Origin: Pseudanabaena sp. UWO311
GTDB taxonomy: Bacteria > Cyanobacteriota > Cyanobacteriia > Pseudanabaenales > Pseudanabaenaceae
NCBI RefSeq assembly: GCF_006937785.1
Contig: NZ_SJEE01000005.1
Location: 124,001-188,000 of the forward strand
DNA: 64,000 bases
Reading direction: 5' to 3'
The notes beneath the pieces are model-generated. The model was not told the DNA's origin. It was given only the letters and a program-made list of their open reading frames with translations, and searched no databases. Positions 22,255 to 25,883 of this stretch are shown in pieces (positions within the stretch are counted from its first letter, which is position 1; each line of letters opens with the position of its first letter). Position numbers and translations under genes: made by a program.

Positions 22255-22335
22255 TTCGTTACTAAATTTGTAACCACGAAGAATTGCAAGATTACTTGAT
22301 GTAAATTGAGGGTAAAGAAATTTGAGGCTTCTCAT

Positions 22336-23172
22336 ATGCTTACCCCATCAAACCTGCGGATTTTGGCAATTTGTTCTGTATTGGTTGGCGGGATTGTTAT
22401 TGCTAGTTATCCTCGTTCGACTGAGTCATCGGCGATTCCCAATCGTTTAAGCGATGAGAAGATCGGAAATAACACTACACAGCCCATATCCTCCGTACCA
22501 TCCAGAAATTATATCCCTCAAAACTCGACTGTATCGATCGCTATTAACCAGAATGGGAATATCCGACGACCCGACCCTAGGGGCTACATCAATGTTGGTA
22601 TTCGAGAAACCTATAAGATTGAAATTAACTCACCTAGCTATACGAGCGCCGTTAGCATAAAAATCGATGGTGTTTCCATTATTGATGGGTTGATCTGCGA
22701 TCGCTCTGTCATCTTGGAGCGACCTCGCGCGATCGCTAAGCAATTTATCGTTTTAGAAGAAGGTAATCCAGGGCTAGATCGAGATGGTGGCATCAATAAT
22801 CCCGATCTAGGCTTAATTGAAGTTACATTTAAACCAATCAAACGCCGAGATGCGATCGCGCTTGAAACACCTAGAACTCAAGAATTTCCTCCATCAGCTT
22901 CAGCACCTTCTAATTCAGCCCCATCCAAAGATGAAGCGTCTAAATCGAGAGCCAGTGAAAATCGCAGTAATGCCGTGGGAACTGGTTTAAGTGGCACTTC
23001 CTCTCAAGATTTTGTAGCGACTAATGAGTGGGTAGAAGCCCCAGAGATTGCTCCCACTTACACTAAAAAATATCGCTTAATCGGATTACGTGCACCAGAT
23101 CCTGTAACACTTCACAACATGAATCAGAACAGACCATCAGAGATTACCGATCCAGTCCCCCCAAGACTTTAG
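22336..23172 (+). CDS. Membrane-anchored protein of unknown function
   Basis: About 278 residues from the ATG at 22336; the upstream TTG at 22306 lacks support. An N-terminal hydrophobic segment (about 8-25, LRILAICSVLVGGIVIASY) is a signal anchor. A globular part to about residue 175 has beta-type sequence, followed by a Ser/Pro/Ala-rich low-complexity linker (PSASAPSNSAPS) and a short C-terminal part with EWVEAPEIAPTYTKKYRLIGL. I do not recognise the family. Monocistronic, with its own terminator. Confidence 0.66.
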   Translation: MLTPSNLRILAICSVLVGGIVIASYPRSTESSAIPNRLSDEKIGNNTTQPISSVPSRNYIPQNSTVSIAINQNGNIRRPDPRGYINVGIRETYKIEINSPSYTSAVSIKIDGVSIIDGLICDRSVILERPRAIAKQFIVLEEGNPGLDRDGGINNPDLGLIEVTFKPIKRRDAIALETPRTQEFPPSASAPSNSAPSKDEASKSRASENRSNAVGTGLSGTSSQDFVATNEWVEAPEIAPTYTKKYRLIGLRAPDPVTLHNMNQNRPSEITDPVPPRL

Positions 23173-23174
23173 GG

Positions 23175-23209
23175 AAGAAAATTGCGGCGCAAAGCGCCGC
23201 AATTTTCTT
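23175..23209. terminator. Terminator after the membrane-anchored protein gene
   Basis: Perfect 16-bp arms AAGAAAATTGCGGCGC / GCGCCGCAATTTTCTT, loop AAA, T-rich 3' side. Confidence 0.85.
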
Positions 23210-23227
23210 TTTGTTATTTATGACAGT

Positions 23228-23296: not shown

Positions 23297-24226
23297 ATGC
23301 GATCGCCACTAGCCTTATTACTAACAGCTTTGCTGGCTATCGGTTTTAGCCAGACTGCCACAATAGCTATAGACTCAGCTTACGCTCAGTCAGCGCAGCC
23401 TCTCGACAACAATGTCATCAAGAAAGTCACGCCGACTAAAGCTCCCTCGAAGACAAAGCCATCACACACACTCGACAATGACTATAGCAACCCCAATTTA
23501 AAAGCGGGAAACCCTAGCAAAGCTACACCTGATGTTGCGAATGCCGATAACTATTTGATGCTCAAGCCTGAGTATGTGCTGAGCTATAGCAAAAGTCGTA
23601 ACATAGCAAACTGGGCTTCATGGCAATTAAATAAATCATGGATGGGTGATGCAAAGCGTCAAAACAATTTTCGTCCTGATCCAGCTTTACCTAAGGGATG
23701 GTATCGGGTAGTAACTACTAACTATGGCGGGTCAGGATTCGATCGCGGCCATCTCGTTAATTCTGAAGATCGTGGTCAATCGGTGGAGGTTAACTCTTCC
23801 ACTTTCTTGATGACGAACATCGTACCGCAAGCACCCGATAACAACCAAGGAGGATGGGAAAAGTTAGAAAGCTACAGTCGAATCTTGGCTAATCAAGGCA
23901 AAGAGCTTTATATCATCGCTGGTGGCTTTGGCATTGGTGGCGAAGGCAATAATGGTAAAGCTTCTCAATTGAAGGGCAAAATCACTGTGCCTGAAACCAT
24001 GTGGAAGGTGATCTTAGTTCTTGACGAACCTACCAAAGGTTTAGAAGGAGTAACTGCCGACACTCGCACGATCGCAGTGCTTATGCCAAACAAGCAAGGA
24101 CGCAATAATAAGTGGCAAGATTTTTGCGTGTCAGTTGATGATGTGGAAAAGTTGACAGGCTATGATTTCTTTTCCAATATTCCTCCCGATATCCAAGAGC
24201 AGATTGAGTCAAAGAAAGGCTGTTAG
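23297..24226 (+). CDS. Secreted DNA/RNA non-specific endonuclease (NucA-like)
   Basis: A 309-residue nuclease of the beta-beta-alpha metal family. A signal peptide (1-31, cleavage near SAYAQS) and a Lys/Pro/Thr-rich linker precede the catalytic domain. The DRGH motif is at 149-152 (GFDRGHLVNSED), with the metal-binding Asn in PDNNQGGWEKLE near 183. Homologues such as Anabaena NucA degrade DNA and RNA outside the cytoplasm. The gene ends 2 bp from the end of a convergent gene encoding a NuiA-like inhibitor, which would protect the cell against mislocalised enzyme. Confidence 0.92.
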   Translation: MRSPLALLLTALLAIGFSQTATIAIDSAYAQSAQPLDNNVIKKVTPTKAPSKTKPSHTLDNDYSNPNLKAGNPSKATPDVANADNYLMLKPEYVLSYSKSRNIANWASWQLNKSWMGDAKRQNNFRPDPALPKGWYRVVTTNYGGSGFDRGHLVNSEDRGQSVEVNSSTFLMTNIVPQAPDNNQGGWEKLESYSRILANQGKELYIIAGGFGIGGEGNNGKASQLKGKITVPETMWKVILVLDEPTKGLEGVTADTRTIAVLMPNKQGRNNKWQDFCVSVDDVEKLTGYDFFSNIPPDIQEQIESKKGC

Positions 24227-24228
24227 GT

Positions 24229-24618
24229 TTAGGTTTCAACAACTGTAGTTTTCAGCCCGACCAAATCATTCCCGATCGCACCAATAATATAAACGTCGAT
24301 CTTGACTTTGCCAAGGCGAAACACTTGGACATTTTCTAAGGTAGCGATCGCAGTTTGCAAGTCGCGAAACCGTTGAGCAATTTCCCGATCTGCATCTTCA
24401 AACCAATCTTGATCTGTAACTACGGGCGCAAAGAGCTCTTCTAAGGAGATCTCTTTGATCGGCGTTTTCGCAGGTTTACCCGATTGGGTCAGGATGGTTT
24501 TACGATTGAGGGTTGCAGATTTCCAAGTGAAAGGTTCTAGAGGATATTCGGACTCACTAGGGAATAGTAAACCTTCGGAGAGTTTAGTAAGGCGATCGCT
24601 GATTTCTGTAGCAGTCAT
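24229..24618 (-). CDS. Nuclease A inhibitor-like protein (NuiA family)
   Basis: A 129-residue cytoplasmic protein without a signal peptide. The segment GLLFPSESEYPLEPFTW near residues 16-32 matches the conserved SESEYPFE-type stretch of NuiA, which supplies the acidic residue that reaches the nuclease metal site; the C-terminal part (KIDVYIIGAIGNDLVGLKTTVVET) is the conserved beta/alpha end. The gene is convergent with the NucA-like gene and separated by only 2 bp, which strengthens both assignments. Pairing in vivo is inferred. Confidence 0.88.
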   Translation of the reverse strand: MTATEISDRLTKLSEGLLFPSESEYPLEPFTWKSATLNRKTILTQSGKPAKTPIKEISLEELFAPVVTDQDWFEDADREIAQRFRDLQTAIATLENVQVFRLGKVKIDVYIIGAIGNDLVGLKTTVVET

Positions 24619-24681
24619 CGGTGTGGTTAATTGCGTATGCTATGACCATACTGCTATTTTTGGATCTGGTGGTGTTAAATG

Positions 24682-24736
24682 AAACCTCACAGCAGGAAAT
24701 ATCCCGCGCGGCGGGATATTTCCTGCTGTGAGGTTT
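24682..24736. terminator. H-type long hairpin after the cysteine desulfurase
   Basis: Perfect 26-bp arms around GCG (base AAACCTCACAGCAGG, tip ATCCCGC), ending one base from the stop codon of the minus-strand gene. Confidence 0.88.
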
Positions 24737-24737
24737 A

Positions 24738-25883
24738 TTATCGTATGGATCGCACTGAAGCAATTACATGATTAGCGACAGTTTCGATCTCATCAAAAGT
24801 GTTAAATCTGCCAATGCCAAATCGAATGGAAGCATAAGCTAACTCCTTGGAATGTCCCAAACAGGTAAGCACATGAGATGGTGCAGTCTTTGCAGAAGTA
24901 CAAGCAGAACCAGAAGAAACAGCGACAACTGGCTGCAAAGCCAGCATTAAAGCGGCTCCATTCACTCCCATAAAGCTAACATTGAGATTACCCACGAGCC
25001 TCTGGGTCGGATGTCCATTGAGAATAATGCGATCAAGTTCGCTTAATCTCTGCCATAAATGTTCACGTAGGTCTAGAGCTTTCTGTTGCTCCTCAGCTTG
25101 AGAAGCGACAGAAAGCTCTAGAGCCTTTGCAAAGCCGACAATCTGCGGCGTATAGAGAGTACCAGAGCGCATTCCTCGCTCATGTCCGCCGCCATGTAAC
25201 TGGGGTGCAAGATTTACTCTTGGTCGGCGACGACGTACATACAAAGCACCAATTCCCTTAGCCCCATAAATTTTATGAGCAGTGAGTGACATCAAATCGA
25301 CCTGCATCGCGTTCACATCAATAGGAATTTTGCCGATCGCTTGAGCCGCATCGCTATGGAATAAGACTTGACGATCATGACAAATCTGTCCAATTTCTGC
25401 GATCGGTTGTATCACCCCAATCTCGTTATTCGCTACCATCACCGAGACTAAAATTGTATCGGTACGAATGGCATCTTTCAGTTTCTGCAAATCAATTAAG
25501 CCATCCGTTTTGACAGGTAAGTAGGTAATCTCAAACCCAAGAGATTGCAAATAAGTACAGGGATCAAGCACTGCGCTATGTTCCGTTTGTACAGTGATGA
25601 TATGCCGCCCTTTTTGGTGATACGCTTCAGCTATTCCCTTAAGAGCCAGATTATTTGCTTCGGTTGCACCGCTAGTAAAAATGATCTCATCGGGTGTTGC
25701 ATTGATAGCATTAGCGATCGCCTCACGCGCTAACTTGACCGCTGCTTCTGCTTCCCAGCCATAGAAATGCCCAACACTTGCCGCATTGCCAAAAGATTCC
25801 CGAAAATATGGCAGCATCGCCTCTAAAACCCTCTCATCGACGGGAGTTGTGGCATGACAATCAAGATAAATTGGTCTTTGCAT
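24738..25883 (-). CDS. Cysteine desulfurase (NifS/IscS family)
   Basis: A 381-residue PLP enzyme that takes sulfur from cysteine for Fe-S clusters and thio-modification. N-terminal YLDCHATTPVDERVLEAM; EANNLALKG; the His of TEHSAV; the PLP Lys in LTAHKIYGAKGIGA; the active Cys in SSGSACTSAK; substrate-binding RFGIGR near the end. These features place it in the group I (NifS/IscS-like) class. No other isc or nif gene is adjacent. Confidence 0.94.
   Translation of the reverse strand: MQRPIYLDCHATTPVDERVLEAMLPYFRESFGNAASVGHFYGWEAEAAVKLAREAIANAINATPDEIIFTSGATEANNLALKGIAEAYHQKGRHIITVQTEHSAVLDPCTYLQSLGFEITYLPVKTDGLIDLQKLKDAIRTDTILVSVMVANNEIGVIQPIAEIGQICHDRQVLFHSDAAQAIGKIPIDVNAMQVDLMSLTAHKIYGAKGIGALYVRRRRPRVNLAPQLHGGGHERGMRSGTLYTPQIVGFAKALELSVASQAEEQQKALDLREHLWQRLSELDRIILNGHPTQRLVGNLNVSFMGVNGAALMLALQPVVAVSSGSACTSAKTAPSHVLTCLGHSKELAYASIRFGIGRFNTFDEIETVANHVIASVRSIR

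What the first reader, a model, noticed from the sequence alone, without database searches (positions are those of the whole stretch)
23297..24618. Tail-to-tail nuclease and nuclease inhibitor, 2 bp apart
A secreted NucA-like nuclease with signal peptide and a cytoplasmic NuiA-like inhibitor are convergent with stop codons almost touching. Antisense overlap of their transcripts could link their levels. It resembles an immunity arrangement where a cell keeps an inhibitor for an exported nuclease.
Basis: partly seen in the sequence, partly recalled or inferred. Interest (0 to 1): 0.52.

Follow-up and report, generated by a model that had tools for sequence, protein, structure and literature searches.

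The report
Tail-to-tail secreted nuclease and inhibitor
A cyanobacterium carries a gene for a secreted DNA/RNA-cutting enzyme end-to-end with the gene for the protein that blocks it inside the cell; both belong to a pair already studied in Anabaena, and this back-to-back layout recurs in many other cyanobacteria.

Summary
nucA-like 23297-24226 (+) and nuiA-like 24229-24618 (-) are convergent with 2 bp between stop codons. Both are clear members of known families: NucA (PF01223; PDB NucA, E 6e-86) and NuiA (PF07924; PDB NuiA, E 6e-27). The pair is therefore a new member of a known, structurally solved nuclease-inhibitor system. The layout is not a local accident. In a class-wide survey, 32 of 42 closely linked rows are convergent, in 10 family codes; 22 of those 32 have stops within 17 bp, often overlapping by 4 bp. 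All 16 plasmid records examined (of 24) are also tail-to-tail. The inhibitor residues recalled as contacting the nuclease are almost invariant, above all the C-terminal Thr (89 of 89 rows). In the same genus, 8 loci hold an intact pair and 4 hold an intact inhibitor beside a decayed nuclease; none shows the reverse. That fits self-protection. Against obligate immunity, 51 of 134 nuclease-bearing genomes have no detectable NuiA, and about half of the NuiA genes are unlinked. Antisense coupling is untested: no terminator lies between the stops, but there are no RNA data. Low to moderate interest.

The parts
23297..24226 (+). nucA-like gene, secreted sugar-non-specific nuclease, 309 aa
   Evidence: PF01223 E 4.4e-58; best PDB hit NucA 1zm8/2o3b E 6e-86 over residues 67-306
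23297..23386 (+). putative Sec signal peptide, residues 1-30, cleavage after AYA
   Evidence: read by eye from the translation; no predictor was run
23741..23752 (+). DRGH catalytic motif, residues 149-152 (His152)
   Evidence: the His column is 142 of 142 in cyanobacterial relatives
24229..24618 (-). nuiA-like gene, cytoplasmic nuclease inhibitor, 129 aa
   Evidence: PF07924 E 4.4e-39; PDB NuiA 2o3b_B/1j57 E 6e-27
24232..24234 (-). codon of the C-terminal Thr129, equivalent to the metal-bridging Thr135 of Anabaena NuiA (role recalled)
   Evidence: Thr is the last residue in 89 of 89 aligned NuiA rows
24553..24555 (-). codon of Glu22, equivalent to Glu24 of Anabaena NuiA (role recalled)
   Evidence: Glu in 84 of 84 rows that cover it
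24403..24405 (-). codon of Trp72, equivalent to Trp76 of Anabaena NuiA (role recalled)
   Evidence: Trp in 78 of 87 rows that cover it
24227..24228 (.). 2-nt gap between the two stop codons; no terminator-like site here
23172..23212 (+). intrinsic terminator-like hairpin with T-run upstream of nucA
   Evidence: consensus scan
24688..24730 (.). strong 20-bp-stem hairpin between the nuiA start and the iscS stop, separating nuiA from upstream iscS transcription
   Evidence: consensus scan

Best explanation
This is the NucA-NuiA pair of a Pseudanabaena-type cyanobacterium. The nuclease is made with a signal peptide and exported, where it degrades extracellular DNA and RNA. NuiA stays in the cytoplasm and neutralises any nuclease that folds before export, by inserting its C-terminal Thr and Glu22 into the metal-containing active site. 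The two genes travel together as a small convergent unit whose 3' ends nearly touch or overlap by 4 bp. Shown here: homology, conserved catalytic and contact residues, recurrent convergent linkage, and decay of the nuclease before the inhibitor in the genus. Inferred: secretion, inhibition of this nuclease by this inhibitor, and the self-protection role.
For: Pfam matches. PDB matches to both partners of the solved complex 2o3b. Thr last in 89 of 89 rows, E22 84 of 84, W72 78 of 87, nuclease His 142 of 142; 85 of 90 NuiA ORFs end in -ET exactly at the stop. PF01223 and PF07924 co-occur: 83 genomes with both, 51 nuclease only, 8 inhibitor only, 149 neither; Fisher p 2e-27, not corrected for relatedness. 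32 convergent, 8 divergent and 2 tandem linked rows (one shadow-ORF row dropped). 16 of 16 plasmid loci examined, out of 24, are tail-to-tail. In 26 genomes of the genus: 8 intact pairs, 4 intact NuiA with decayed nucA, 1 both decayed, 0 intact nucA without nuiA. Anabaena nucA and nuiA were used as nuclease and inhibitor in a kill switch (PMC4890671, passages).
Against: 51 of 134 PF01223-positive genomes have no PF07924 match, and nucleases about 45-50% identical to this one occur on Hymenobacter plasmids where no NuiA was found. So the inhibitor is not always needed, or it diverges beyond detection. 47 of 89 NuiA rows are not linked to a nuclease. PMC11844001 (passage) uses the nucA-nuiA region of Nostoc 7120 as a neutral integration site, so the pair is dispensable in the laboratory. 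The 4-to-0 decay asymmetry is a small number, and nucA is the longer target. No binding, inhibition or secretion was tested.
Confidence: 0.85

Rival explanations
1. The conserved tail-to-tail geometry is itself regulatory: read-through transcripts of each gene are antisense to the other, so high nuclease transcription lowers inhibitor mRNA or the reverse, coupling their levels. (This can hold together with the best explanation.)
For: 22 of 32 convergent rows have stops within 17 bp, against 1 of 11 other convergent gene pairs in two 50-kb annotated stretches (background read; rows are related, so the p of 0.001 is only indicative). No terminator-like site between the stops in the window, but hairpins on both outer sides.
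Against: 8 divergent, 2 tandem and 47 unlinked NuiA rows show the proteins do not need the geometry. Inheritance of an ancestral layout explains the recurrence too. No RNA data were available.
Confidence: 0.12
2. The pair acts as a toxin-immunity or plasmid-stabilising module, with NuiA protecting kin or plasmid-bearing cells from nuclease made by neighbours or remaining after plasmid loss.
For: 24 plasmid records hold NuiA. Intact inhibitors persist beside decayed nucleases in 4 loci of the genus, with pairwise dN/dS of 0.15-0.32 involving them, within the range of paired copies. NuiA duplicates occur, with 2 full pairs in G232 and one pair plus an orphan in G117.
Against: A secreted nuclease of this family is not known to enter other cells (recalled). 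No delivery domain is seen in the 309-aa protein. No PADLOC match and no NuiA in 50,697 phage records. Break points of the decayed nucleases differ, so the losses may be recent and the dN/dS may reflect the time before loss.
Confidence: 0.07
3. The layout (as distinct from the proteins) has no function beyond shared inheritance: an ancestral convergent pair is kept by chance and by compact packing. (This can hold together with the best explanation.)
For: Convergent rows cluster on the NuiA tree (12 changes against a shuffled mean of 26.3), and most divergent rows cluster in one nuclease clade, as expected of inherited states.
Against: Flanking genes differ between loci in the genus while the pair stays together with about 80 nt of conserved sequence before nuiA, so linkage survives relocation. 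Near-zero spacing recurs in nine family codes.
Confidence: 0.4

Closest known systems
Anabaena sp. PCC 7120 NucA (All7362) and NuiA, PDB 2o3b complex, 1zm8, 1j57/1ktu
   Same: Same families over the catalytic domain and the whole inhibitor; DRGH motif; inhibitor ending in -VET; recalled contact residues Glu24, Asp75, Trp76 and Thr135 all have identical equivalents in the window
   Different: Both proteins are diverged from the Anabaena ones. The PCC 7120 record was not held, so its orientation was not compared; the related Trichormus variabilis plasmid A is convergent with 8 bp between the genes. The solved NucA chains read ARGH where the window reads DRGH; I recall that a D121A mutant was crystallised
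Serratia marcescens nuclease and mitochondrial EndoG/EXOG (Endonuclease_NS family)
   Same: Same nuclease family (one search lists 1g8t, EndoG, EXOG)
   Different: No NuiA-type inhibitor partner is named in the matches; other protection modes (recalled)
Bacillus NucA/NucB with inhibitor Nin
   Same: Secreted nuclease gene beside an inhibitor gene (PMC5758888 passage)
   Different: That paper reports no meaningful sequence similarity and little structural similarity between Nin and NuiA, and no significant sequence homology between NucB and Anabaena NucA
Colicin DNase-immunity pairs
   Same: Nuclease kept in check by a cognate cytoplasmic protein
   Different: Colicin immunity proteins bind an exosite and the toxin enters other cells (recalled); here the predicted contact is in the active site and there is no delivery domain

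Membership tests
Endonuclease_NS / NucA | Family profile match over the catalytic domain | tested here: met
   PF01223 197 bits against cut-off 23; PDB NucA 292 bits
Endonuclease_NS / NucA | DRGH motif and metal/catalytic Asn and Glu | tested here: met
   DRGH 149-152 followed by TN...DNN...E in the window protein; these columns are conserved in 142 rows
Endonuclease_NS / NucA | Export signal | tested here: inconclusive
   Sec-like N-terminus by eye only
Endonuclease_NS / NucA | Non-specific DNA/RNA cleavage | not testable with these tools
   needs an enzyme assay
NuiA | Family profile match over full length | tested here: met
   PF07924 134 bits against cut-off 22.1, profile positions 2-130 of 130
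NuiA | C-terminal Thr as last residue, Glu24 and Asp75/Trp76 equivalents (roles recalled from the structure paper, not held) | tested here: met
   Thr129, Glu22, Asp71, Trp72 in the window
NuiA | Tight inhibition of the cognate nuclease | not testable with these tools
   needs an inhibition assay
Toxin-antitoxin / plasmid addiction module | Nuclease intact only where the inhibitor is present | tested here: not met
   Holds in the genus (8 of 8 intact nucA have nuiA) but not in the class: 51 of 134 nuclease-positive genomes lack a NuiA match
Toxin-antitoxin / plasmid addiction module | Operonic co-transcription of the two genes | tested here: not met
   Genes are on opposite strands

The most novel reading that the evidence does not exclude
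The touching or overlapping 3' ends form a selected antisense switch: transcription of the exported nuclease and its cytoplasmic inhibitor is mutually exclusive or balanced through convergent read-through. Orphan NuiA copies whose own nuclease has decayed are kept as protection against nuclease encoded elsewhere, by a plasmid or a second pair.
Probability: 0.08. Interest if true: 0.5.

Novelty: new member of a known kind. Interest (0 to 1): 0.22.

Why it matters
It shows that the one structurally solved cyanobacterial nuclease-inhibitor pair is a widespread, usually tail-to-tail unit rather than an Anabaena speciality. It offers a natural series (intact pair, orphan inhibitor, unlinked pair, nuclease alone) for testing whether an exported nuclease needs a cytoplasmic guard and whether convergent overlap tunes the two genes. 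It is otherwise an expected gene pair.

Tried and rejected
Considered a phage or anti-phage origin: no NuiA in the phage collection, no PADLOC match, one PHROG nuclease match for NucA only. Rejected.

Considered that nuclease-only genomes carry a distinct nuclease clade: on the nuclease tree 'none' rows are interleaved with paired rows (21 changes), so no clean clade. A column-by-column comparison of paired (36) and NuiA-less (50) nucleases gave a few differing columns, but it was not corrected for relatedness and could not be tied to the interface. Not used.

Considered a single ancestral loss behind the orphan inhibitors: break points of the nucA remnants differ, so this was not supported; stepwise erosion of a shared loss is not excluded.

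The distant-relative scan of named genomes failed with the wide alignment and worked only with the genus alignment, so named survey data come from the genus and from plasmids. Literature: five searches on NuiA/NucA and two wider ones; in the passages read orientation of the Anabaena genes was not stated, and the complex structure paper was not held; the original gene papers were not looked up by id. Whether the tail-to-tail layout is already in print is unknown.

Full report
WHAT IS THERE. The window lies in a 5.2-Mb genome (G000). Its NuiA is closest, among plasmid records, to one on a Pseudanabaena galeata plasmid (73%), and all 7 named relatives found with the genus alignment are Pseudanabaena or an uncultured cyanobacterium. 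The nucA-like gene (23297-24226, +) and the nuiA-like gene (24229-24618, -) face each other with a 2-nt gap between stop codons. Upstream on the nucA side are orf22306 and a protochlorophyllide reductase gene; on the nuiA side lie an aminotransferase-V family gene (24738-25883, which I call iscS) and a PsbQ-family gene. Terminator-like hairpins lie outside the pair at 23172-23212 and 24688-24730. None lies between the stops, although weak candidates on the + strand exist inside both coding regions (23782-23803 and 24311-24328); the second would end a nucA transcript about 100 nt past its stop, still antisense to the end of nuiA.

FAMILIES. The nuclease matches PF01223 (E 4.4e-58) and Anabaena NucA of known structure (E 6e-86); the inhibitor matches PF07924 over its full length (E 4.4e-39) and NuiA of the solved complex 2o3b (E 6e-27). 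NCBIfam has no model that matches either. From memory, since the structure paper is not held: NuiA blocks NucA by placing its C-terminal Thr135 on the catalytic metal, with Glu24 in the active site and Asp75/Trp76 as a second contact. The window has identical residues at all four positions. Across 89 cyanobacterial NuiA rows the last residue is Thr in 89, Glu22 is Glu in 84 of the 84 rows that cover it, and Trp72 is Trp in 78 of 87; Asp71 is not conserved (44 of 89). 85 of 90 NuiA ORFs end in -ET directly before the stop.

SURVEY OF THE CLASS. Of 291 genomes, 91 have a PF07924 match and 134 a PF01223 match; the 91 include weak matches in larger two-domain proteins. 83 genomes have both, 51 only the nuclease, 8 only the inhibitor, 149 neither (Fisher p 2e-27, uncorrected for relatedness). 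I gave the 89 stronger NuiA hits listed (weaker ones, E above about 1e-13, were left out) and the 150 listed nuclease hits, whose list was cut by the tool. 36 of the 89 NuiA hits lie within 10 kb of a nuclease hit: 27 convergent, 7 divergent, 2 tandem, one of the tandem ones 5.1 kb away. With exact ORFs and a limit of 1.5 kb there are 43 rows; I dropped one convergent row in G264, a shadow ORF overlapping its partner by 315 bp, leaving 32 convergent, 8 divergent (one of which, in G264, also involves that weak short ORF) and 2 tandem. Convergent rows come from 10 family codes. Spacings are -4 bp (12 rows, stops overlapping), 0 (3), 1, 2 (3, including the window), 4, 11, 17, and ten rows of 40-692 bp; four of the 32 rows involve a decayed nucA. 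So 22 of 32 are within 17 bp, against 1 of 11 other convergent pairs read from two 50-kb annotated plasmid stretches. That background is small, plasmid-borne and from two species.

PLASMIDS. 24 plasmid records hold NuiA. I examined 16 of them. 14 have an annotated convergent nuclease, with gaps from -27 to 76 bp. In Nodularia spumigena the nuclease is not annotated, but an ORF with a nuclease match (336 bits) lies convergent to nuiA; it lacks its 5' part and meets a reverse-transcriptase gene. On P. galeata pPg_01 the inhibitor gene is broken and the nuclease is a remnant, still convergent. All 16 are tail-to-tail.

DECAY IN THE GENUS. In 26 genomes of the window's genus, eight loci have both genes intact. 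Four have an intact inhibitor beside a decayed nuclease: G023 (fragments with stops), G137 (residues 162-309 only), G117 second locus (285-309) and G179 (281-309). One (G158 second replicon) has both decayed. No locus has an intact nuclease without an intact inhibitor. In each decayed locus nuclease sequence adjoining nuiA remains, and the break points differ in the three loci aligned. About 80 nt before nuiA are conserved where outer flanks are not. Pairwise dN/dS involving orphan inhibitors is about 0.15-0.32, within the range of paired ones (0.07-0.37); this cannot separate selection before and after loss.

READING. The simplest account is the known one: an exported nuclease with a cytoplasmic inhibitor that protects the producer. 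The genus-level decay order fits. The class-level count does not fit an obligate toxin-immunity module, because 51 of 134 nuclease-positive genomes show no NuiA match. Trees show the convergent state clustered and recurring (NuiA tree 12 changes, shuffled mean 26.3; nuclease tree 13 changes, mean 25.1), consistent with an old convergent layout lost or rearranged several times; the trees are quick ones with many unresolved forks and give no root. Whether the touching 3' ends regulate anything cannot be settled from sequence.

LITERATURE. The Anabaena pair is well studied. PMC4890671 (passages) uses it as a kill switch with NuiA guarding against leaky nuclease. PMC4390845 (passage) names All7362 as the characterised NucA and reports a NucA homologue, Alr7261, in the exoproteome. 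PMC11844001 (passage) uses the 'nucA-nuiA neutral site', so adjacency in Nostoc 7120 is known. Orientation was not stated in the passages read.

VERDICT. Confirmed observation, known system, new member. The recurrent tail-to-tail spacing and the nuclease-first decay are the only parts a specialist might not expect.

Noticed in passing
G088, G008, G252, G212, G205, G161: Larger open frames (213-420 aa) carry two weak NuiA-like stretches, a divergent two-domain relative of the inhibitor; function unknown.
   Followed up: no
G057:C1:1985304-1986002, G198:C97 and C83: Endonuclease_NS domains sit inside very large open frames (6833-9808 aa), unlike the small secreted NucA.
   Followed up: no
L293:1693-2358 (Nodularia spumigena plasmid): nucA lacks its 5' part and meets a reverse-transcriptase-domain gene, while the convergent nuiA is intact; possibly an inserted retroelement.
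   Followed up: partly
G108:C39:30829-30945, G232:C50:681-821, G117:C34:8128-8235, G172:C4:47185-47322: N-terminal nuiA fragments, three of them on the same contig as an intact nuiA, suggesting repeated duplication or recombination at these loci.
   Followed up: no
window 24619-24680, complement: The stretch before nuiA holds a block (around GTATGGTCAT) largely conserved in the genus even where outer flanks differ; a similar CAGTATGG lies before nucA near 23225. Possible promoter or operator.
   Followed up: partly
window 24688-24730: 20-bp-stem hairpin between nuiA and iscS, the strongest terminator-like site in the region.
   Followed up: no
window 22306-23172: Unassigned protein gene (no Pfam or NCBIfam match) that stays beside nucA in three other genomes of the genus.
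   Followed up: no
Plasmids of Hymenobacter (H37, H47, H50): Nucleases 45-50% identical to this one occur on Bacteroidota plasmids with no NuiA match.
   Followed up: no
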